Positions 7,347 through 63,415 of a stretch of DNA of 64,000 nt are shown piece by piece; positions within the stretch are counted from its first letter, which is position 1, and every line of letters starts with the position of its first letter. The stretch is from Labia minor. Its lineage: Eukaryota > Arthropoda > Insecta > Dermaptera > Spongiphoridae. Where the stretch lies: contig OY720344.1 of the NCBI GenBank assembly GCA_963082975.1, forward strand, positions 85,622,107-85,686,106. Direction: 5' to 3'. The translations under genes and the position numbers were made by a program. The notes beneath the pieces were generated by a model, which ran no database searches, had not been told where the DNA came from, and saw only the letters and a list, made by a program, of their open reading frames with translations.

Positions 7347-7680
7347 TACTAGGTTAGTGATAAGATATGGTATTGGAAGACCGTCGATTGACTGAAAGAG
7401 ATTTAACAGGCTTTAGGTATTTCATTGGGCACAATGAGCAATATTTTGAGTGTTAATTTGGGTTTCAGAAAACTATGTGCAAAATCGCATTCTCTAACGA
7501 TAGAGAAAAAACACATTCGACTTTGCCAGCAACATTTGGAGCTTTTTAAGAAGAATAAAAGCGAATTTATCCGTCGATTTATCACAATGGAAGAAACTTG
7601 GATTTACAATCATGACAAGCAGGAGGATAAGCGAGTTCGTGTGCAAAAATCAGCCAAGAAGGTATTAGCATCAGTTTTTT
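7347..7680 (+). pseudogene. mariner transposase, first part (split by HltB)
   Basis: Plus-strand translation from about 7425 gives TMSNILSVNLGFRKLCAKS, then a divergent stretch, then FIRRFITMEETWIYNHDK and VQKSAKKVLASVF. These are mariner-family landmarks: SNIL.VNLG, the catalytic region around (M)(D/E)ETW, and the K.MASVFWDAKG lead-in. The catalytic Asp of MDETW reads Glu here. The region just upstream matches the mariner at 50.2-50.8 kb but lacks its terminal repeat. The frame runs straight into the inserted HltB element at 7681 and resumes at 8867. Non-functional. Confidence 0.8.
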
Positions 7681-8690
7681 ACTTTCCCGCATACTTCGTA
7701 TAAGGGAAGTATTGGAATCGTCAAAAATTTCGACTTCGAGATTTCGATAGATCTTGACGTTTTAGACCTCCCTGAGTCGGAAAATACAATTTTTCGAATT
7801 ATGTCTGTGTGTGTATGTATGTATGTATGTATGTATGTAATGTCTGTAAGCAAATTTACTCAAAAACTAATCAAGCTAGGACTTCGAAATTTGGTACACC
7901 GATATTATTCACAGTTTGTAGATTTCTATCAAAATTTCGTCAAAATCGGTTAACCGGAAGTGGTACTTTACCTACACTGGTTGCGTTTACCTTTCAAGTA
8001 AAGTACCAGTTTGCTTCGAGATATTTGCTTCATATTTTGTATATAGATTTAAAAATATGAAAAAAATTGAGATACCAAATTTCATCATGATCTGACTACC
8101 GGAAGTGACATTTTACCTATACAAGAAGCGTTTCTTTTTTACCGACCGACGATAGTAAGGGAGGTATTGTTTTCACACCAAATTTCACCTATGGATATTT
8201 TTAGGTACATATCTCCACGAATCATGCATTTTCTTAACAGAAAAAAGTATTTTTAGCATGATGTCTGTCCGTCTGTCCGTCCGTCCGTATAGATGTGTAC
8301 AGCCTGAACGGCTGAACGGATTTTGATGAAATTTGGTATATTTACTTAATGCATCAGTGGGATGAATTGGTCAACTTTTGGTGCAAATCCGGAAATCGAA
8401 AGTGCTAGTATTGCCGATCGAAGAGAGGAAGTGAAGGGTTATTTTCATATCAAATTTCACGTGAGGACATATCTCCACGTGTTATGCACTTTGTATTGGT
8501 TTTATCCTCGAGAAAAATCATCTTCATTAGTTTTTTCTTAATTTAAAATTATATGACGTGACCCAGCACTTCATGACGTCACAGCCAGCCCTTATATATT
8601 ATAAATAAAATAAAATTAAAAATATTTATATTATATCCATATCTGTTTTTTTTACATTTAAAATATCAGTTAACCGGAAGTAGCACTTTA

Positions 8691-8721
<31 letters not shown>

Positions 8722-8866
8722 TGTTATCAAATATCAAATTTGACACCAATAAACTAATACGAACTGGCTCTTTATCAATACCAAGTTTACACATTCTAAA
8801 TATTCATTCACAACTCTTTATACCTATTTATATGCGGAAAAGTCTAGGGGAGGACACTCCCGCTTA
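7681..8866 (+). mobile_element. HltB Helentron-like element, copy 1 (contains HltD sequence)
   Basis: The 5' end ACTTTCCCGCATAC is matched by an inverted copy (gcggaaaagt) at 8834-8843. That copy lies inside a 3' hairpin (ggggaggacactccc) and a final CGCTTA. After about 130 nt comes a GTAT microsatellite (7808-7838), then an AAATTTGGTA block. From about 8139 to 8660 the body is HltD sequence, starting ttaccgaccgacgatag and including its own gtctgtccgtccg tract. It then returns to HltB tail sequence. It encodes no protein. The asymmetric inverted repeat, 3' hairpin and T-rich target are features described for Helentrons and their non-autonomous derivatives. It is inserted in the mariner. Confidence 0.75.
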
Positions 8867-9488: not shown

Positions 9489-9665
9489 CTATAAAGATTT
9501 TAAAATAAATATCGATAATGAAAATGTTTCTTTCTAAATGTGAATTGAAATATTTTCCCCTACTTATGTAATACCAATGGGTAGTTGAAATTGAGAAAAT
9601 AATTTATTGAAAAATCACCAAATTATTGATAGTTTTAGTTTATTATACATAAATCATAAATAAAT

Positions 9666-10299
9666 AAGTTGACCTGTGGCCAGGTCCGAACCGACCAACG
9701 GTTTGAAGTAAATTAATTTCCAGCTACAGAAACAATTTCAAATAATTTTAATAAATCTATTAATGTAATAAAAAACATATGGATACATAAATAATAAATA
9801 TAAACATTTTTAATTTTATTTTATTTATAATATATATGTGCAAGACCAGGCTGTGACGTCATGAATGGCTGGATGACTTCATATAATTTTAAATCAAGAA
9901 AAAACTAATAAATATGATTTTCCCGAGGATAAAACCAATACAAAGTGTATGATTCGTGGTGATATATAAAAAAATCTCCTCATGTGAAATTTTGTGTGAA
10001 AATAACCCTTCCCTTCCTATCGCCGATCGCTAATACTACCACTTCCGGTTTCCGGATTTGCACCAAAAGTTGATCAATTCATCCCACTGATGCATTAAGT
10101 AAATATACCAAATTTCATCGAAATCCGTTCAGCCGTTTAGGCTGTACACATCTACACGGACAGACGGACGGACGGACGGACAGACATCTTGCTAAAAATA
10201 CTTTTTTCTGTTAAGAAAGATTCGTGGAGATATGTAAAAATCTCCACATGTGAAATTTGGTGGGAAAACAATACCTCCCTTACTATCGTCGGTCGGTAA
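9666..10299 (-). mobile_element. HltD Helentron-like element, full copy, inverted
   Basis: Reverse complement of the copy at 20522-21152. On the minus strand it begins TTACCGACCGACGATAG and carries a GTCC/GTCT tract, then ggatttcgatgaaatttgg. It ends with the inverted terminal motif (cgttggtcggtt), the hairpin GACCTG-GCCA-CAGGTC and AACTT. No coding potential. Confidence 0.8.
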
Positions 10300-15884: not shown

Positions 15885-16472
15885 ACTATCTCGCCAGTAT
15901 TTCGATCACGAAAATTTTCAATGTCGAGATTTAGATGTTTTTATACGTTTTGAAGGTCCCCGAGTCATTTTCACTTAGGTCAAGAAAAATGTCTGTGTGT
16001 GTGTATATGTGTATTTAGACAAAATTACGCAAAAATGGTTTGAGCTAGAATCATAAAATTTGGTAGCCGGGCATTATTCAAAATTCGTAGTTTTCTATCA
16101 ACTTTTGAGAAAAGTAGCTCAATCGGAAGAGGGTAGTTTTGATTTTTTTTTCCTCTAAACTGGTTGTAAAAATGTAAATATATGTTTGATAATTTTTCAC
16201 ATGATTAAAAATTGTATAAAACTTCTATATATAGAATTTCAGCTTAATTGAATTGCTGAAAATATCGAAATTAATTATTTAACACGTTGACTGGCAATCA
16301 CGCTCCAGCACGTGACGTGGTGCCATCAACAAAGAGCCAAAGACGCGCTGGTTTAATAAATATTATTTATTAATTTTAATTTATAATTTAGTAAATTAAA
16401 TTTAATTTAAATATAATATATGTTAATTAATCCAATTCAAATTTGCGAGATAGTCGAGTGGAGACACTGCAG
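15885..16472 (+). mobile_element. HltC Helentron-like element, copy 1
   Basis: The 5' end ACTATCTCGC is repeated exactly inverted (gcgagatagt) at 16445-16454, followed by the hairpin gagtg-gaga-cactg near the 3' end. The body carries tgtctgtgtgtgtgtatatg and then aatcataaaatttggtag. The order of motifs after the 5' end (gatcacgaaaattttc, gtcgagatttagatg, acgttttgaagg, ccgagtc) parallels HltB, although the sequences differ. No coding potential. Confidence 0.7.
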
Positions 16473-17048
16473 ATTTTTGTATTTTGCGTACATTAAGCTT
16501 CGAATCTCGCTACTTTGTTTAATATAATGAAACAATTTCGATTTTTTAAAAAATGTGTATTTTATATTAAACAGATATGTATAATATAAATCAATATAAT
16601 TATGTTATAATCATTTATACCTCGCTTTATGTGTGTGTATTTGTTTACAATCTTTTTTTATTTTAAATAAATGATGACATGAAAAAATTTATATTCTTAG
16701 AATTACCACTATAATTATCAACTCAAATACGTTTCTTCTATTTGTTTTTATAGGTGTCTATATAATCAATCATCATTTTTTTACTTATAAATTTTGCGGA
16801 ATTTCTAATGGATGATCGATGTTGATTGCATTTTATTCACGACATTTTCTAGTAATAACTTTTTTTTTCTTTTTTAAATGCTTTACCTTAGTAGAAAGAG
16901 AGAATGAAATATACATTTTTATTTACCTACCTATATTATTAAGAAAAATTTACAATAATGATTAAAATAACAAAAATAAATAAATAAAAGTTATTCTTGA
17001 TTCTGTAATGCCTTTTGGATTTTTTTGATTACATTGATTATATAGAAG
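16473..17048. other. AT-rich spacer
   Basis: Immediately after HltC, ttcgaatctcgc resembles a tRNA B box, but no tRNA fold is complete. Nothing else recognised. Confidence 0.4.
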
Positions 17049-20383: not shown

Positions 20384-20521
20384 GTGTCATTTACATTCAG
20401 TAAATTTCTTCTTAAAAATTAAATAAAATTTCAAAAAGTCAATGTATAGTCGATACATTTAAATATAATTGTATATTACGTAATATAATTGTGTATTAAT
20501 ATATCATATAAAGAGTATTTT

Positions 20522-21152
20522 TACCGACCGACGATAGTAAGGGAGGTATTGTTTTCACACCAAATTTCACATGTGGAGATTTTTACATATCTCCACGAAT
20601 CTTTCTTAACAGAAAAAAGTATTTTTAGCATGATGTCCGTCCGTCCGTCTGTCCGTCCGTATAGATGTGTACAGCCTGAACGGCTGAACGGATTTTGATG
20701 AAATTTGGTATATTTACTTAATGCATCAGTGGGATGAATTGATCAACTTTTGGTGCAAATACGGGAACCGGAAGTGGTAGTATTAGCGATCGACGATAGG
20801 AAGGGAAGGGTTATTTTCACACCAAATTTCACATGAGGAGATTTTTTTATATATCACCACGAATCATACACTTTGTATTGGTTTTATCCTCGGGAAAATC
20901 ATATTTATTAGTTTTTTCTTGATTTAAAATTATATGACGTCATCCAGCCATTCATGACGTCACAGCCTGGTCTTGCACATATATATTATAAATAAAATAA
21001 AATTAAAAATGTTTATATTTATTATTTATGTATCCATATCTGTTTTTTATTACATTAATAGATTTATTAAAATTATTTGAAATTGTTTCTGTAACTGGAA
21101 ATTAATTTACTTCAAACCGTTGGTCGGTTCGGACCTGGCCACAGGTCAACTT
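20522..21152 (+). mobile_element. HltD Helentron-like element, full copy
   Basis: Reference copy of HltD. The 5' end is TTACCGACCGACGATAG. A GTCC/GTCT tract at 20636-20662 is followed by ggattttgatgaaatttggt. Two TGACGTCA-like segments lie at 20935-20960. The inverted terminal motif cgttggtcggtt (10 of 11 against accgaccgacg) precedes the hairpin GACCTG-GCCA-CAGGTC and AACTTA. No protein is encoded. Confidence 0.8.
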
Positions 21153-21627
21153 ATTTATAACTAATTAATCACTTTAGTCAGTCTCTCTAATGTTAATTGA
21201 TTAACTTAATTGATTAATTGATTAATATTACTTTAAATGATTATTTCAAAAATAAATTATTCAAAAGATTGAAAAATAAAATAAAATTTCAAAATCACAT
21301 ATTTTTGATTGAAATTAAATAGTTCGATAGGAAATATTATTATAAACACAAGACAACATTAATAGTAGTGATTAGTTTGAGAATAATTCTACGCAAAAGA
21401 AAAATTTGAAAGCTGTCTTATTAGATTAATTTATTAATTTATTATGTGTGTGTATGTTTGCGTGTGTTTGTGGAAATATGAAATATAACTCTGCTATAGT
21501 ATTGATAATATTTTTACATTAATTTTATCATTTGTCTATATTTCATTAATTTTAAATCTTTCAAAATAAATTTAAAAATTCAGTCATATTATTTACATTT
21601 CTCAAGCGTCTCTTAATCTTCATTTAG
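21153..21627. other. AT-rich intronic DNA
   Basis: Nothing recognised. Confidence 0.5.
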
Positions 21628-24126: not shown

Positions 24127-24286
24127 ACTTTAAAACAAAAAAAATGAGCTCTGGCTAGGCAGACGATTTAAAAATAATTAAAAACAATTATATTAATATG
24201 TAACTATGTATTTTTTATTTCACCAATTAGTTTAATGTAATAATAAAAAATTTCCGACAATGAATATAAAATTAATACTTTGTAAA

Positions 24287-24565
24287 CTACCACTTCCGGT
24301 TTCCGGATATACACCAAAAGTTGAAGAATTCATACAACTGATGCATTAAGTAAATATACCAAATTTTATCAAAATTCGTTGAGCCGTTCAAGCTGTACAC
24401 ATCTATACGGACACACAACGGACCGATAGACGGACGGACAATCATGCTAAAAAATATTTTTTTTTATTAAGAAAATGCATAATTCGCGGAGATACGCAAA
24501 AATCTCCACATGAGAAATTTGGTGTCAAAACAATACCTTCCCTTCCTATCGTCGGTCGGTAAAAG
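24287..24565 (-). mobile_element. HltD fragment, inverted
   Basis: Contains the 5' half of HltD on the minus strand: ttttaccgaccgacgatagg, the GTCC/GTCT tract in decayed form, and aattttgataaaatttggt. The 3' half with the hairpin is missing. Confidence 0.75.
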
Positions 24566-28010: not shown

Positions 28011-28098
28011 CATTAAGGGCAAATTAATTGTTTATAAAATAAATTTCTACAATTTAGATCGCGTTGAGTTAGGTTATTTATATTAAAAATTAAATTAA

Positions 28099-28606
28099 TA
28101 AGTTGACCTGTGGCCAGGTCCGAACCGACCAACGGTTTGAAGTAAATAAATTTCCAGTTACAGAAACAATTTCAAATAATTTTAATAAATCTATTAATGT
28201 AATAAAAACAGATATGGATACATAAATAATAAATATAAACATTTTTAATTTTATTTTATTTATAATATATATGTGCAAGACCAGGTTGTGACGTCATGAA
28301 TGGCTGGATGACGTCATATAATTTTAAATCAAGAAAAAACTAATAAATATGATTTTCCCGAGGACAACCAAAAGTTGATCAATTCATCCCACTGATGCAT
28401 TAAGTAAATATACCAAATTTCATCAAAATCCGTTCAGCCGTTCAGGCTGTACACATCTATACGGACGGACAGACGGACGGACGGACATCATGCTAAAAAT
28501 ACTTTTTTCTGTTAAGAAAATTCATGATTCGTGGAGATATGTAAAAATCTCCACATGTGAAATTTGGTGTGAAAAAAATACCTCCCTTACTATCGTCGGT
28601 CGATAA
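28099..28606 (-). mobile_element. HltD Helentron-like element, inverted, internally deleted
   Basis: Both HltD ends are present on the minus strand: ttatcgaccgacgatagt at the 5' end, and cgttggtcggttcggacctg with the GACCTG-GCCA-CAGGTC hairpin at the 3' end. A deletion near 28368 removes about 125 bp between the ttttgat...cat block and the tgacgtca region. Confidence 0.8.
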
Positions 28607-29545
28607 AAATGTATAGAACTCACTTTTTACTTTCCCGCATACTTCGTATAAGGGAAGTATTGGAATCGTCAAAAATTTCGACTTCGAGATTTCGATAGAT
28701 CTTGACGTTTTAGACCTCCCTGAGTCGGAAAATACCATTTTTCGAATTATGTCTGTGTGTGTGTATGTATGTATGTATGTATGTAATGTCTGTAAGCAAA
28801 TTTACTCAAAAACTAATCAAGCTAGGACTTCGAAATTTGGTACACCGATATTATTCACAGTTTGTAGATTTCTATCAAAATTTCGTCAAAATCGGTTAAC
28901 CGGAAGTGGTACTTTACCTACACTGGTTGCGTTTACCTTTCTAGTAAAGTACCAGTTTGCTTCGAGATATTTGCTTCATATTTTGTATATAGATCTAAAA
29001 CTATGAAAAAAATTGAGATCATGATCATTGATTTCATCATGATCTGACTACCGGAAGTGACATTTTACCTATACAAGAAGCGTTTCTTTTTTACCGACCG
29101 ACGATAGTAAGGGAGGTATTGTTTTCACACCAAATTTCACCTATGGATATTTTTAGGTACATATCTCCACGAATCATGCATTTTCTTAACAGAAAAAAGT
29201 ATTTTTAGCATGATGTCTGTCCGTCCGTCCGTATAGATGTGTACAGCCTGAACGGCTCAACGGATTTTGATGAAATTTGGTATATTTACTTAATACATCA
29301 GTAGGATGAATTGATCAACTTTTGGTGTAAATCCGGAAACCGGAAGTGCTAGTATTGCCGATCGAAGAGAGGAAGTGAAGGGTTATTTTCATATCAAATT
29401 TCACGTGAGGACATATCTCCACGTGTTATGCACTTTGTATTGGTTTTATCCTCGAGAAAAATCATCTTCATTAGTTTTTTCTTAATTTAAAATTATATGA
29501 CGTCACCCAGCACTTCATGACGTCACAGCCAGCCCTTATATTATA

Positions 29546-31559
29546 TCTATATATATAAAGGAGAGTGTTTGTATGTATGTATGTATATATATATGTATGT
29601 AATTTGTTTACTTTTTTGCTGTCATGGAAACAAACAAAAAAGAAATTTCCTACTTAACCGACACTTTACCGGTAATTTAGAATTATGAACATCAAAAAAT
29701 AAGAAACGATTTCTACATCATAATATTCTTATATATCTCTATGGTAACATAGGCTATAGATTTTATTAATATCTAATTCTAATCAATAACCGCAGAATTT
29801 AATTTTTTAAAGTTTATATAGTTCTTCGTGTTGTTGATTCAAGAGCCAGGCGTGGCCCACTGACTGGCGGACTCATTTTACACAATGTATATAACTAGCA
29901 ATCAAAGAATTATTATAATATTTAACTTTTTATTTTAAATTCTAATATTCAAATATCATTTCAATTAAATAATTTATTCTAAAAGTTCCCATTTTAATTA
30001 ATATAATAAAATATTTAAATCATATTTAACTTAAATTATTTTGTATTTATTCTTTCTATATTTGAATACTTCTTTTATTTTAAGGGAGGGAATTAACTAT
30101 GATCTAAAAAAAATAATAAATGAACTTAATAATAAAAAATCAAATAAATCCATTAATTTAAATTAATACTATTAATGAATGTATATATTGTTAATTTATC
30201 TTTAGTTTTATCAATACTTTTATACCGTTAATTTTTATAAATTGTCTCAAGTCTCTAACTTTGCATTTTCTCAAATTTTATTATAATTAAAAATATTCAA
30301 TAAAAATCAAGCAATGAAATTAAAATATCAAAATGAAATGATCAAGAAATATTATACTCTATTATAACATATACAATACTTATAACTATAGGCGGAGGAA
30401 ATATTTGACGATATCATTGCGTGTTCATACCAAATCGATCAACATTAATTAAGATATTTTCATTATGACAGATATTAAAAAAACCGCGAATTCAATATCT
30501 CTGTTCACTAATTATTTGTAGACTTTAGTAAAACCTACGCATGACTCAATAGATCCGGATAAACTTTTTCAAATTTTGATCTTAAAATTTATCTTGAAGG
30601 TAGTAAAGAAAGAGTAAGATGCGGAAATCAATTGTAAAATATTAGGTGACCCAGACGACTCAAATAATATAATAGGAGATTCGGCAATTGCAATTACAGA
30701 TAGCGAGGAAAAATTAATCGAGGTAGGAAAAGAGATGAGGTTTGAAATTAATAATGATAAATAAATATATTTAGAAACAAACAGGAGCAGTATTAACATA
30801 CAAGATGTAGAATTTGAATATGTAGAAAAATTGAATGTAATCACGAAGGATAATAATATTTGAGAAGAATTTAAATCGAAGTTGCAATCGGGAAACGCCT
30901 GTTATCATGCAGTAAAGAGGCTTATCTCATCAAAATTATTATAAAAGGGAATGAAAATTAAAATATATAAAACAATTATTTTGTCTGTTGTATTATATGA
31001 GTGTGAGACATGGTCTATGATCTTAGGAGATGAGAGTGGATTCAGAGTATTTGAGAATAGGATTCTCCCCAGCATTTATGGGCCAAAGAAAGATGAGGGA
31101 ATGACGTACGAGAGATGGAACAGAGGTTCAGGATAAGGACACTTGGAGAAATGTGGTTGTAGCTGCCAAGAACTTTCGAGTACCGTTGAGCCACGCATGG
31201 TCTATGACCCTGGGAGATGAGAGTAGATTCAGATTATTCTTTCCAGCATTTATTGGCCAAAGAAAGATGAGGTCACCGGGGACACTTGGAGAAATGTGGT
31301 TGTAGCTGCCAAGAACTTTCGTGTAGATAGATATAACATATTCAATAATAATATATATAATTAATTTACTATTTAAATTAAAATATATTTTAAATAATCA
31401 CACAATAAGAAATGAATGTTTTATGTTATACATTGTTTGAAACAAAATGGATGAAAACCTTTTACTACTTTCAACCAAATACTATGTACCACTCGGGGGT
31501 ACAGGGGGCGGAGCCCCCGTCTAGATGTGAAGAGCGACGAAGGAGCTCTGAGCAGCTAG
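29546..31559 (+). mobile_element. HelA Helitron, 2.0-kb copy inside HltB
   Basis: It starts TCTATATATATAAAGGAG and ends with hairpins (gggggcggagccccc, agagcgacgaaggagctct) and CTAG. The left flank ends in A and the right flank begins T, as Helitrons require, with no target duplication. Its own microsatellite is GTAT in place of GTCT. The ataaccgcagaatttaa block and the reverse transcriptase segment are present. Confidence 0.82.
30420..31325 (+). pseudogene. Captured reverse transcriptase fragment in HelA (second copy)
   Basis: Broken frames give DDSNNIIGDSAIAITDSEE, QDVEFEYVEKLNVI, LYECETWSMILGDESGFRVF and IYGPKKDEG. The tail RNVVVAAKNFRV is then present twice, because the segment at about 31005-31165 is partly duplicated at about 31192-31320. 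The GFRPNR block is decayed to yeast-like noise. Non-functional. Confidence 0.75.
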
Positions 31560-31820
31560 TTATAAATAAAATAAAATTAAAAATATTTATATTATATCCA
31601 TATCTGTTTTTTTACATTTAAAATATCAGTTAACCGGAAGTAGCACTTTATTCTATATATATATATATATATAAATGTTACCAAATATCAAATTTGACAC
31701 CAATAAACTAATACGAACTGGCTCTTTATCAATACCAAGTTTACACATTCTAAATATTCATTCACAACTCTTTATACCTATTTATATACGGGAAAGTCTA
31801 GGGGAGGACACTCCCGCTTA

Positions 31821-34429
31821 TTATTATAAAAACTAAAAGAAATATCTAAACAAGAAGAACAGGGTTGCTCATCTCTCCCAAAAGCAATAATAATAATAAT
31901 AATAATTAATTGGCTATAAAGTGATAAAACAAATTAAACTTAATATATCATTGTTTAAAAAAAAATTGTTTCAGTTGCACTTTACGTTCAGCAACTGCCT
32001 CAATATATATATTAATATTATATTAATATGTATATATATATATATATATAAAATCTGATTGCCAACTTTTTCAAATTGAACATTATACCATTCATTGAGC
32101 AACTAGACAAGTTTTTTTTAGAATTGCACAGAAATTTCTTTATTTGTTACATATAGGTATATATTTAAAATTTAAATATAAAATTACCAAATGCGCTTTT
32201 TAAGTTAGTAAATTATAATTTATTATCTACTAAATTTTTATATTGTTATTTTTTTATATACAATATATTGCTTCAATATAATAACGAGTGTATAATGGAT
32301 ATGCATTTTTTTCGATATAAAAAATCTTGCATTGGCTAACATGTAAAACTTTCGAAATGGGAGCATGTCTTAATTATTAAAAAGCAGGTGGGCAAACCAA
32401 TAACCGAGATCGGATAGCTGTCTTATATAGATACAATATCAAAAAAATGACAATATATTTTCTATTTATTTAAAGTCAATTAAGTATCATTTTGAATTGG
32501 TTCTTTAAAAAATATGGGAAATCTTATCTTAATAAAACAACACAAATTAATTATGAATCCCTCCCCCTCCTAAATAAAAAGGAAATAGAATTTAATACAA
32601 TTATCTTATTTGTAAATCATTACTCTTAACAGATTTTATAAACTTAGTTAATAATTTGAATACAAAAAAATTAATATAAAGTGAGTTACACTTTACAGTG
32701 AGTTTTAAAGTATTTTTTATGTTTCTGCTATATATAGATATTAGTAAAAACTAAAATTATTATAATTTAAAGAATTTGAATATAATCCTATAATGTTGCC
32801 TATATTGTAAATATTAGACCTCAAATGAAATTTGAAATTTTATTAACTAATGATAAGTACTTATTTCATATTTGATATTGTTGGCTTGGGTTGAATTTAG
32901 ATAAGGATTCAGGTTAGTTGAAATTAAATGGATTATAATAATATTTATTAACTATTACCTATGAATACTAATTTGGTAATCTATTAAGTTTAAATAATCA
33001 TTTTCGAGTAGATATTAAATTTTATTTACATATTAAAAACGGTCCTAATAATAAGTACTCATTCAACAGTTCAACACATAATTTTAAAATTAGTAAAATC
33101 GTAATAAAGCAATTTCAAAATATTTTTTATTAGTTTAAAAAAAAATACAAGGTTTTAATATTAAATTATATGTATTAGGAAAAGTGTTTTTTTATTCATA
33201 TCATAAAGAATTTATGATACATTAAACATATCAAGTTTTTGCATGTTCTTGATTCATATATAAAATTTATTAATTATTTATGAATGATTAGCATTACTAA
33301 TTTTCGAAAAGTATAATAAGAATTTATTTTCTTTATTATCAAAATTATAAGAAACTTGCTTTTCAATTTTTTTTTATATGATTCTCGAAATTTATTAAAA
33401 ATATTATTGGAAATTTATGTTATAGGCTTAATTTATTAGTATTATTTTGCGGTTACAGTTAAATATATACAAATGTACCGTATATACAAATATTTTTCAA
33501 GAAATAGTACATATAATGTATTTATACAATAATTGTTTAAATATACAATAAATAAATTATCTAGAAAAAATATTTTATTAAACTAAGATATGGAAATTTT
33601 TAGTGTATAAGTAACAAACAAATTCAATTAATCATGCAATTATAAAAGAAATATTTTATAATATATATTATATTTGTAAACTATGATATTAACTATTAAC
33701 TAATGATATCAATCATATCAGATTAATTTATCATTATTATGATTTTAATATAAGTGAAAACAAACAAAAATAAATATTAAATAAACAATTAATTAATCTG
33801 TAGAACCACAAAGAAAATCAAGATATCAAACATTAAGGATAAATCCATAATTTGATTTCTTAATTTAAAAAATTATTAATCTAATCTATTTGATTTACAA
33901 AATTTTCGAAAATAATAAAGAGAAAATGCTCTTTTACAAACATTGATAACTAGTAAAGAAAAAGTTGTTTTAATAACTTTAAATGATGTAAAAAAATTGA
34001 TCTGATTGACTTTTGTCTATAATATAGACAGATAATTGAGATGTTTAAATTTTTGAAACAATCTTTAACATAATATAATCTTTTTAAATCATTTGCGGCC
34101 AACATTTATTTATTTTTAGATTAAAATTAGAGATCTAAACATTTTATTTATTTCATCAGATACATATCATATAATATTCATTCATATGGATTATTTAAAA
34201 TTAAATTTATATATTAGTTATACATATAAATTAATAGTTGCATGCAAGATTCATTATTAAATTATAAATGCAAACAATTTATGTATGATTAATATTAATC
34301 GTTAAATAATCAGGAAATAATTAAAATACAAACAATAAGACATTAACAATTTTTAAGGGTATTTATAATATTAAATTGAAATATGTATAAGTAAAATATT
34401 TATATTAAAAAAAATGTATATAATATACT
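31821..34429. other. AT-rich intronic DNA
   Basis: About 2.6 kb of AT-rich DNA with (TA)n at 32027-32050 and an (AAT)n at 31888-31906. The short cag|ttgcactttacgttcagc at 31969 looks like an exon start but runs into a stop without a donor. Nothing accepted. Confidence 0.5.
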
Positions 34430-36020: not shown

Positions 36021-36258
36021 AATCTCTTTGTAGTTGAATATGATAAAATAAATATTTAATATATACCTATATTTATATTTATATAATATAAAATTACTAT
36101 ATTAAAAATAAAATATTTCTGAAATTCCTTTGATATATATTTATTATAATAAATAAATACTAGTAAATACACTACATTAACTTAGTGTCTATATAAAAAT
36201 ATATTCCTAAGATTAATGTTTGTAATAAAAATACATAGTATAGTTATAATAAAAAAAT

Positions 36259-36711
36259 CTGGTCTCCACTCAACTATCTCGCAAATTTGAATTGGATTAA
36301 TTAACATATATTATATTTAAATTAAATTTAATTTACTAAATTATAAATTAAAATTAATAAATAATATTTAATAAACCAGCGCGTGTTTGGCTCTTTGTTG
36401 ATGGCACCATGTCACGTGCTGGGCGTGATTTGCAATGATAAAAAAAAAATTCCGGTACTTTCAGCGATTCAATCAAGCTGAAATTCTATATATAGCAATT
36501 TTATACAATTTTTAATCATGTGAAAAATTATCAAACATATCTTTATTTTTACGGTTAGTTTCGAGGAAAAAAAAATGAAAACGTGTTAGGTAATGACCCT
36601 CACAGACATTTTTCTCAATCATAGTGTAAATGACCCAGGCACATTCATAACTTATAAAAACATGAAAATCTCAACATCGAAAATTTTCGTGATCACAATA
36701 CTATCTCTGGC
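36259..36711 (-). mobile_element. HltC Helentron-like element, copy 2, inverted
   Basis: On the minus strand it begins gccagagatagtattgtgat (5' half-hairpin partly lost). It lacks most of the tgtctgtg microsatellite and ends gcgagatagttgagtggaga. The interior matches copies at 15885 and 62810 (agccaaacacgcgctgg against gagccaaa-ac-cgctgg in those copies). Confidence 0.7.
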
Positions 36712-50225: not shown

Positions 50226-50761
50226 TGTTGTTCAATAAGTTCGCGAAACGGAAATATAGAAATCAATTTTTATTTGTAAAAATTTGTAAAATTGTTTCGA
50301 GAGGTTACAATAATAATCTGAATTGATTATTTTGCCAGTAAGGAGATAATCTATAAACAAAATTCCTTTAGCATCCCAAAAAACTGGTGCTAACACCTTC
50401 TTGGCTGATTTTTGCACATGAATTCGCTTCGGCGCCGAAGAGACGGGTTCACACCACTCTTTAACCTCCTGTTTTGTTTCAGGATCATGATGGTAGACCC
50501 AAGGCTCATCCATTGTGATAATTCTACAGGTAAAGCTTTTATTCTTCTTAAAACGCTCCAAATGTTGCTGGCAAAGACACATCCGAATGTGTTTTTTTTC
50601 ATCATTAGAGAATGCGGCACCGATTTTGCACATCATTTTTTGAAACCCAAATTAACACTCAAAATATTGCTTATTGTGCCCAATGAAATGTTAAATCTCT
50701 TTCAGTCAATCGACGATCTTCCAATACCATATCTAATCGCTCCGCGAACTATTGAACAACC
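50226..50761 (-). mobile_element. mariner element, internally deleted
   Basis: Terminal inverted repeats tgttgttcaataagttcgcg and the complement of gcgaactattgaacaacc lie between TA dinucleotides. The minus-strand transposase reads SNIL.VN.GF, KKHIRMCLCQQHLERF, RIITMDEPWVYHHDPETKQE (MDEPW in place of MDETW), VQKSAKKVLAPVFWDAKG and ILFIDYLLTGKIINSDYY. It then drops into the terminal repeat region, so the second half including the last catalytic Asp is lost. A one-base frameshift separates the N-terminal part. It supplies the uninterrupted version of the site where HltB entered the 7.4-kb mariner. Confidence 0.85.
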
Positions 50762-62809: not shown

Positions 62810-63415
62810 ACTATCTCGCCAGAGATAGTATTGCGATCACGAAAATTTTCGATGTCGAGATTTTGATGGTTTTATACGTTTTGAAGGTTCCTGAATCATT
62901 TTCACTAAGGTTGATAAAAATGTCTGTGTGTGCGTGTGTGTGCATGTGTGTATGTGTGTATGTAGACAAGATTACGCAAAGACGGTTTGAGGTAGAATCA
63001 TGAAATTTGGTATACGGGCATTATTCAAAATTCGTAGTTTTCTATCAATTTTTGAGAAATGTAGCTATTTCGGAATAGGGTCATTACCTACCAGGTTTTC
63101 ATTTTTTTTTCCTCTGAACTGACATAAAAATAATTATATATGTTTGATAGTTTTCCACATGATTAAAAATTGTATAAAACTGCTATATATAGAATTTCAT
63201 CTTGATTGAATCGCTGAAAGTATCGGAATTAAATTTTTAACACTGCAAATCTTACGCGCCAACAGATGACGTGGTCAACAAAGAGCCAAACATGCGCTGG
63301 TTTAATAAATATTAGTTATTAATTTTAATTTATAATTTAATTAATTAAATTTAATTTAAATTTAATATATGTTATTCAATTCAATTCAAATTGCGAGTGG
63401 AGGCACTCCAGCTTA
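62810..63415 (+). mobile_element. HltC Helentron-like element, copy 3
   Basis: It begins with the terminal hairpin ACTATCTC-GCCA-GAGATAGT. It has a long tgtctgtgtgtgcgtgtgtg tract (62921-62964), then aatcatgaaatttggtatac. It ends gcgagtggaggcactccagc and TTA, where gagtg-gagg-cactc forms the 3' hairpin. The gcgagatagt inverted motif is shortened to gcgag by a deletion fused to the hairpin. The 3' terminus is like that of HltB. Confidence 0.75.

What the first reader, a model, noticed from the sequence alone, without database searches (positions are those of the whole stretch)
20522..21152. Three unrelated-looking families share one Helentron-like architecture
HltB, HltC and HltD each have a 10-12 bp 5' terminal motif (ACTTTCCCGC, ACTATCTCGC, ACCGACCGACG), its inverted copy just inside the 3' end, a 3' hairpin immediately after it (ggggag..ctccc, gagtg..cactc, GACCTG..CAGGTC) and a terminus in or near CTTA. 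Asymmetric terminal inverted repeats plus a 3' hairpin are the published hallmarks of Helentrons and their non-autonomous derivatives. Seeing three parallel families that keep the plan but not the sequence suggests the plan itself is what the transposase recognises.
Basis: partly seen in the sequence, partly recalled or inferred. Interest (0 to 1): 0.72.

Follow-up and report, generated by a model that had tools for sequence, protein, structure and literature searches.

The report
Non-autonomous Helentron (HINE) transposon families
These are high-copy, non-coding rolling-circle transposons of a known type; two of the three families turn out to be close relatives, and hybrid copies suggest that the two ends of an element must belong together for it to jump, rather than the general shape being enough.

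Summary
HltB, HltC and HltD each have a 10-12 bp 5' motif, its inverted copy, a hairpin 1-3 nt later and usually a CTTA/CTAA terminus. Both ends were placed in 73 of 88 fetched copies and their spacings are nearly constant. A strict scan finds the plan 3 times in the window and 0 times in 20 shuffles. Seven filled/empty site pairs show T-run changes and no target duplication. This is the published HINE plan (PMC4067079, PMC7492417). A Rep match and, in the same frame, a PIF1-type helicase end with a probable endonuclease lie elsewhere in the genome; no link to these ends was shown.

The inference is not supported. HltB and HltC are homologous, ends included; HltD has unrelated ends on a probably B-like core. 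A composite with two 5' ends (B and D) but only the B 3' end is listed at 58 places. Of 39 found without using B's 5' sequence, 19 were read upstream: all 19 have B before D. A B5'-D3' hybrid was found once among 40 scored places. Matched ends, not the plan alone, seem needed.

The parts
20523..21153 (+). HltD, complete HINE copy (the finding)
   Evidence: 37 of the 40 scored places (this copy included) match over the whole 631-base query, the others at 93-97% identity; 3119 candidates in the first look
20518..20522 (+). five T's before the 5' motif; exactly five in 16 of 23 D, 17 of 27 C and 10 of 23 B copies, so perhaps partly element-borne
20523..20533 (+). HltD 5' subTIR ACCGACCGACG
20634..20661 (+). 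GTCC-type microsatellite in the 5' module
   Evidence: read directly
20777..20865 (+). second, degenerate copy of HltD's own 5' end inside HltD (84% to 20515-20601)
21118..21128 (+). HltD 3' subTIR (inverted copy of the 5' motif)
21132..21147 (+). HltD 3' hairpin GACCTG-GCCA-CAGGTC
21150..21153 (+). HltD 3' terminus CTTA, followed by target T's
9665..10297 (-). second complete HltD
28094..28606 (-). HltD with internal deletion
24286..24560 (-). HltD 5' fragment
7681..8866 (+). HltB composite: B 5' module, HltD 1-535 (3' end missing), B 3' module; inserted in a mariner-like fragment
7681..7690 (+). HltB 5' subTIR ACTTTCCCGC
8141..8658 (+). HltD 5' part with intact 5' subTIR carried inside HltB
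8834..8843 (+). HltB 3' subTIR (one mismatch in this copy)
8847..8861 (+). HltB 3' hairpin
28629..29559 (+). HltB composite, 3' part missing
31560..31822 (+). 3' part of an HltB composite, cut by a CTAG-ended repeat on its left
15885..16484 (+). HltC copy
36248..36709 (-). HltC copy with internal deletion
62810..63415 (+). HltC copy (3' inverted motif truncated)
50354..50429 (-). mariner-like sequence without insertion: the empty-site counterpart of HltB 7681-8866 (90% over 79 columns)

Best explanation
HltB, HltC and HltD are three families of HINEs, the non-coding partners of Helentrons (endonuclease-bearing rolling-circle transposons). Shown here: the anatomy, its constancy across copies, recent amplification of the best-matching copies, and insertion in T-runs without duplication of other bases. 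Inferred from the published Helitron/Helentron model: a Rep-helicase(-endonuclease) supplied in trans nicks at the T/5' subTIR boundary. The helicase peels off one strand, the 3' hairpin pauses it, the nuclease cuts after CTTA at the 3' subTIR, and the product joins a TT in the target. Supported but not proven: the start and stop signals must belong to the same family. The subTIR copies match within each family, and natural hybrids with mismatched ends were not seen to multiply. The shared plan is therefore best explained by descent plus a mechanism that needs each module, with family-specific sequence recognition, and not by recognition of the plan alone.
For: Ends and spacing nearly constant in the 73 of 88 fetched copies with both ends placed. 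3 plan hits against 0 in 20 shuffles. Seven filled/empty pairs show T-number changes and no other duplication. Young copies: median difference from the family majority 0.9% (B composite), 1.8% (B short), 1.7% (D), 3.6% (C), on best-matching copies only. Rep match in a 2,181-residue frame and, 965 codons on in the same frame, a PIF1-type helicase end with a probable endonuclease. The plan matches PMC4067079 and PMC7492417. Matched ends: 19 of 19 D5'-B3' copies read upstream have B before D (19 of 39 places besides the window's); B5'-D3' hybrid 1 full-length of 40 scored. Common descent: B-C and B-D each 0 of 1000 shuffles with microsatellite and termini removed.
Against: No autonomous element with B, C or D ends was found. 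The two Rep loci read at length (10 and 9 kb) lack these end motifs, and their long frames show no endonuclease family at E up to 0.01; the stretches may not reach those elements' own ends. The ends of the endonuclease-bearing frame, and 2.5 kb between its Rep match and L112, were not read. Its endonuclease match is below Pfam's cut-off (23.2 against 27.4 bits), and the endonuclease part alone finds no endonuclease among solved structures. C-D homology alone is not significant (83 of 1000). Distances differ from the mite HINEs. The matched-ends test rests on the best 40 of 492 candidates ranked by likeness to one query; 0 of 19 still allows up to about 15%.
Confidence: 0.85

Rival explanations
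1. The plan alone is recognised: any 5' motif with an inverted copy and a hairpin will do, whatever its sequence.
For: D's 3' end shares no detectable sequence with B's or C's beyond CTTA (B3-D3 765 of 1000 and C3-D3 524 of 1000 shuffles score as high), yet keeps similar spacing. In Helraiser the hairpin stem can be swapped with ~90% activity (PMC4778049).
Against: B and C are homologous in core and 3' end. A composite with D's 5' motif (exact in 15 of 19) upstream of a B 3' end has B before D in 19 of 19 read. The B5'-D3' hybrid was found once. In Helraiser, swapping the whole hairpin or its loop cuts activity to the hairpin-deleted level.
Confidence: 0.1
2. MITEs of a cut-and-paste DNA transposon with short TIRs, as DINE-1-like elements were once classified.
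For: Short inverted repeats, no long reading frame, high copy number.
Against: The inverted repeat is near-terminal at 5' but ends mostly 19-25 nt inside at 3', with a hairpin after it. No target duplication other than T's at seven sites.
Confidence: 0.03
3. Canonical Helitrons (5'-TC...CTRR-3', insertion between A and T).
For: 3' hairpin close to a CTNA end; CTAA ends (13 of 27 C) fit CTRR; no duplication; Rep-PIF1 frames without a detected endonuclease are present.
Against: 5' ends are T-run + AC, not TC. CTTA does not fit CTRR. The target is a T-run, not A^T. Canonical Helitrons lack terminal inverted repeats (PMC4778049).
Confidence: 0.07
4. Helitron2-type partner: same asymmetric TIRs and palindromes but a Rep-helicase without endonuclease mobilises these elements.
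For: Helitron2 is described with asymmetrical TIRs and palindromes and no endonuclease (PMC4067079). Rep-PIF1 frames without a detected endonuclease exist here.
Against: L089 and L090, as far as read, carry none of the three families' end motifs. A frame with helicase and probable endonuclease is present.
Confidence: 0.2

Closest known systems
HINE families of Helentrons (HINE-Mo 1-7, mite; Thomas et al. 2014, PMC4067079; passages and two short sections read)
   Same: Several families per genome with different subTIRs, inverted copy at the 3' side, 3' palindrome, T-rich target, no other target change, variable T number at paralogous empty sites.
   Different: Here the 3' subTIR ends mostly 22-25 nt and the hairpin mostly 5-6 nt from the 3' end, against ~38-60 and ~8-35 nt in the mite. 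No autonomous partner has been linked yet.
Cg_HINE elements of the Pacific oyster (PMC7492417; passages and section 7 read)
   Same: 11-12 bp subTIR, GTCC-type microsatellite in the left module (as in HltD), 3' subTIR followed by a palindrome, 11 elements some related and some not, T-rich target, no duplication.
   Different: I saw no long central satellite array in the copies read. A complementary IR behind the 5' subTIR is convincing only in HltC (8 bp, 23 of 2000 shuffles); B 364 of 2000, D 1981 of 2000.
DINE-1/INE-1 of Drosophila (PMC4067079, passages read; PMC2374699 seen in a search listing only)
   Same: subTIR, microsatellite, 3' stem-loop, TT preference, high copy number.
   Different: The conserved DINE-1 core sequence was not compared; no DINE-1 sequence was at hand.
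Helraiser/canonical Helitrons (PMC4778049, passages read)
   Same: 3' hairpin near the end as terminator; essential 5' end.
   Different: TC...CTAG ends, no inverted repeats, A-T target.

Membership tests
HINE (non-autonomous Helentron) | 11-15 bp subterminal inverted repeats, 5' copy near the end, 3' copy inside | tested here: met
   Majority ends 12/12, 11/12, 11/11; 0 of 2000 shuffles each
HINE (non-autonomous Helentron) | 3' palindrome between 3' subTIR and terminus | tested here: met
   Hairpin 1-3 nt after the motif in 69 of 73 copies
HINE (non-autonomous Helentron) | subTIR and palindrome at the distances given for mite HINEs | tested here: not met
   mostly 22-25 nt and 5-6 nt here against ~38-60 and ~8-35 nt in the mite; given for one species' families and not as a definition, so treated as variation
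HINE (non-autonomous Helentron) | insertion in T-rich target, no target duplication | tested here: met
   7 filled/empty pairs; T number gains about 0 to 5, so the exact T boundary is unresolved
HINE (non-autonomous Helentron) | microsatellite in the 5' module | tested here: met
   read in window copies
HINE (non-autonomous Helentron) | no coding capacity | tested here: met
   No frame of 130 aa or more overlaps the three families in the window (shorter frames were not listed)
HINE (non-autonomous Helentron) | shared ends with an autonomous Helentron (Rep-helicase-endonuclease) | tested here: inconclusive
   Rep match and, in the same frame, helicase end plus probable endonuclease; its ends were not read; L089 and L090 lack these end motifs
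canonical Helitron | 5'-TC and CTRR-3' ends, insertion between A and T, no inverted repeats | tested here: not met
MITE / cut-and-paste | symmetric TIRs and fixed target duplication | tested here: not met

The most novel reading that the evidence does not exclude
Helentron ends work as a matched lock: transposition needs a 5' and a 3' subTIR of the same family, either because one Rep reads the same site twice or because the two ends pair with each other. An intact foreign 5' end carried inside an element is therefore silent. The 58 listed places of the B5'-D5'-B3' composite would be a natural end-choice experiment showing this.
Probability: 0.35. Interest if true: 0.55.

Novelty: new member of a known kind. 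Interest (0 to 1): 0.3.

Why it matters
The families themselves are ordinary HINEs. What is useful is the end-choice record: elements with two 5' ends and one 3' end, in many copies, let one ask from sequence alone whether Helentrons need matched ends. In the parts of the papers that I read, what reads the subTIRs is not settled. The abutting tail-to-head copies also hint that a finished 3' end plus its T's is itself a favoured target.

Tried and rejected
Autonomous partner: PF14214 gives 104 match rows in the genome. L089 (10 kb) and L090 (9 kb) around two long frames hold Rep, PIF1 and DUF6570 with no endonuclease family at E up to 0.01, and none of the B, C or D end motifs; I did not determine those elements' own ends. 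L112 (1,450 bp) lies in the same frame as the Rep match at C1:47868109, 965 codons on from its start, and holds a helicase C-terminus fused to a probable endonuclease; the endonuclease part alone found no endonuclease among solved structures. Of 119 listed B, C and D places compared with 54 Rep places (of the 104 rows), one pair lay within 25 kb: a D copy 5.7 kb from a Rep; whether they belong together was not examined. Places were not compared.

Most rows are 62-75% matches of AT-rich DNA; I dropped them, and also L075 (83-87%) and L059 (88-89%), whose match is a neighbouring HINE's 3' end on one side. I kept pairs of about 80% or more that span the junction. The first homology test (z 16, 6 and 5) included the microsatellite; after removing it and the termini, C-D is no longer significant. 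I first took the 213-base matches for a new family; L091 showed an ordinary short HltB. A 5' local inverted repeat as a common feature fails in B and D. Species was not determined.

The genome search answered six times. Searches did not complete. only waited. Searches (term too short; wrong frame coordinates) were errors of mine. PMC5148889 was only listed, never read.

Full report
What was checked. The window lies at G000:C1:85622107-85686106 of a 604-Mb genome in 71 contigs. The window's G+C is 24.2%. The focal element is at 20523-21153. The other copies in the window are HltB at 7681-8866 and 28629-29559, HltC at 15885, 36248 (-) and 62810, and HltD also at 9665-10297 (-), 28094-28606 (-) and 24286-24560 (-).

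The anatomy is real. I fetched 30 B copies, 30 C and 28 D with flanks. Both ends were placed in 23, 27 and 23 of these; two of the 73 are evidently misplaced and count as misses. The majority 5' motif is matched by the 3' inverted copy at 12/12, 11/12 and 11/11 bases, and none of 2000 shuffles reaches this in any family. The hairpin begins 3, 1 and 3 nt after the inverted motif in 23/23, 24/27 and 22/23 copies. It ends 5, 5 and 6 nt before the terminus in 14/23, 24/27 and 19/23. The other 9 B copies end right after the hairpin and lack CTTA. A blind scan for the whole plan gives three places in the window (two HltD, one HltB) and none in 20 shuffles. Window HltC copies fail this strict scan; their 3' motif or hairpin is damaged.

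Target. Seven filled/empty pairs at about 80% identity or more span the junction: the window's HltB inside a mariner-like fragment with an empty counterpart at 50429-50354, and L041, L047 (B), L074, L081 (D), L018, L023 (C). What changes is the number of T's: the window's HltB has T6+T3 where the empty site has T6, and the gains elsewhere run from about 0 to 5. In L047 an AA next to the hairpin appears to belong to the short HltB end. For L023 the empty sites differ among themselves at the junction (TTA, TCA or TTT), so it is the weakest pair. No other duplication is seen. Exactly five T's precede the 5' motif in 17 of 27 C, 16 of 23 D and 10 of 23 B copies, with none above five in C. This suggests that some T's belong to the element. 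The exact boundary stays open, as in the mite study.

Relatedness. With the microsatellite and termini removed, B and C score 551 against 243 +- 23 for shuffles (0 of 1000). B and D score 291 against 186 +- 20 (0 of 1000). C and D score 229 against 199 +- 20 (83 of 1000, not significant). The last 34-35 bases of B and C, C typed with its CTTA variant, align with 28 identities of 34 by my count (0 of 1000 shuffles); B-D and C-D 3' ends do not align above chance (765 and 524 of 1000). So B and C are sister families, 3' ends included, and their 5' motifs agree at 8 of 10 bases. D has unrelated ends on a core that resembles B's. The phrase 'keep the plan but not the sequence' holds only for D's ends.

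Which end is used. HltB exists as a short form (565-610 bp in 7 copies) and as a composite (1.1-1.2 kb in 16 copies) in which HltD bases 1-535, with its 5' subTIR but without its 3' end, sit between the B 5' and B 3' modules. D follows B in 21 of the 30 B copies fetched, 19 of them with the B 3' module. A query starting at D's 5' motif and running to B's 3' end, with no B 5' sequence in it, returned 40 scored places of 492 candidates; one is the window copy and the other 39 are not among those 19. That makes 58 listed places. I read the upstream flank of 19 of the 39: all 19 have the B 5' module immediately before D's motif, and D's 11-base motif is exact in 15 of them. None is a free element that begins at D and ends at B. 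The other 20 were not read. The converse hybrid, B 5' to position 216 joined to D's 3' end, exists once in L055, with a T-run before it and CTTA-TTT behind. A search with it returned itself as the only full-length match among 40 scored of 270 candidates. Composites are the youngest group (0.9% from their majority) and D is similarly young (1.7%) (best-matching copies), so lack of time is a poor excuse. The simplest reading is that start and stop must be of one family. Limits: 0 of 19 allows up to about 15%; the scored places are the best matches only; the D part of composites is 78-87% like HltD, so more than the 11-base motif may have been lost; and the L055 hybrid may be a deletion and not a jump.

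Autonomous partner. PF14214 has 104 match rows. Two long frames (1,785 and 1,754 residues) have Rep, PIF1 and DUF6570 without a detected endonuclease, and the stretches read have no B, C or D end motifs. At C1:47868109 the Rep match lies in a 2,181-residue open frame. I read 482 residues that begin 965 codons on in the same frame; the 2.5 kb between were not read. They run from a helicase C-terminus (best solved relatives are PIF1 helicases, with Helraiser also listed) into a region whose best Pfam match is Exo_endo_phos_2 (E 6.4e-5, 23.2 bits, cut-off 27.4). It has GDFN and QIDIVLS motifs that I recognise from memory as endonuclease-like. On its own it finds no endonuclease among solved structures. 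That arrangement fits a Helentron. Whether it carries the B, C or D ends is unknown.

How it most likely works. From the published Helitron model (PMC4778049, passages read) and the Helentron description (PMC4067079, passages and two sections read), the 5' subTIR would be the start site, the hairpin a pause or terminator signal, and the 3' subTIR plus CTTA the stop site. A T-rich target is joined without duplication. In Helraiser the hairpin's stem can be changed with ~90% activity, but replacing the whole hairpin or its loop drops activity to the hairpin-deleted level. So shape matters there, but not shape alone, which agrees with the end-choice result here.

Known or new. The plan, several families per genome with different subTIRs, GTCC microsatellites, T-rich targets and the T ambiguity are all in print (PMC4067079; PMC7492417, passages and section 7 read). 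My searches for Helentron, subTIR and HINE found four papers, one for Helitron with subterminal inverted repeats also four, and two broader ones 18 and 84 (only listings seen beyond the papers named). In the parts I read I saw no end-choice analysis of this kind, but I read no paper whole. The families are new members of a known kind.

Noticed in passing
L078, L019, L075, L059, L067 (5' flanks); also L111: 5 of 73 copies sit directly behind another HINE's 3' end (hairpin 6-9 bp before their own 5' motif, same orientation: C-D, C-C, D-D, D-B, D-B); none of the 73 abuts a neighbour within 20 bp in another arrangement (rows at 24-28 bp are, by position, the 3' subTIRs of the same neighbours). L111, outside the 73, is a further case (composite then D).
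   Followed up: partly
L055:576-926: A single B5'-D3' hybrid element with T-run and CTTA-TTT flanks.
   Followed up: yes
window 31250-31560; L090: A repeat with a GGGGGCGGAGCCCCC palindrome and a CTAG end, probably a canonical Helitron end, has cut an HltB composite; similar sequence lies upstream of the Rep frame in L090.
   Followed up: no
L112 (stored - strand), last ~137 residues: Behind the probable endonuclease the frame continues with a stretch containing GHWICTYFDG that looks protease-like to me; no Pfam family matched it at E up to 1.
   Followed up: partly
G000:C5:46740114-46792979: A cluster of degenerate Rep matches, several spaced about 9.8 kb or 5.7 kb apart, apparently a tandem array.
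   Followed up: no
window 7356-7680 and 50378-50741: Mariner-like transposase fragments (my naming, from the frame's sequence; no family search was run).
   Followed up: no
window 20515-20601 and 20777-20865: HltD carries a second degenerate copy of its own 5' end inside itself (84%).
   Followed up: no
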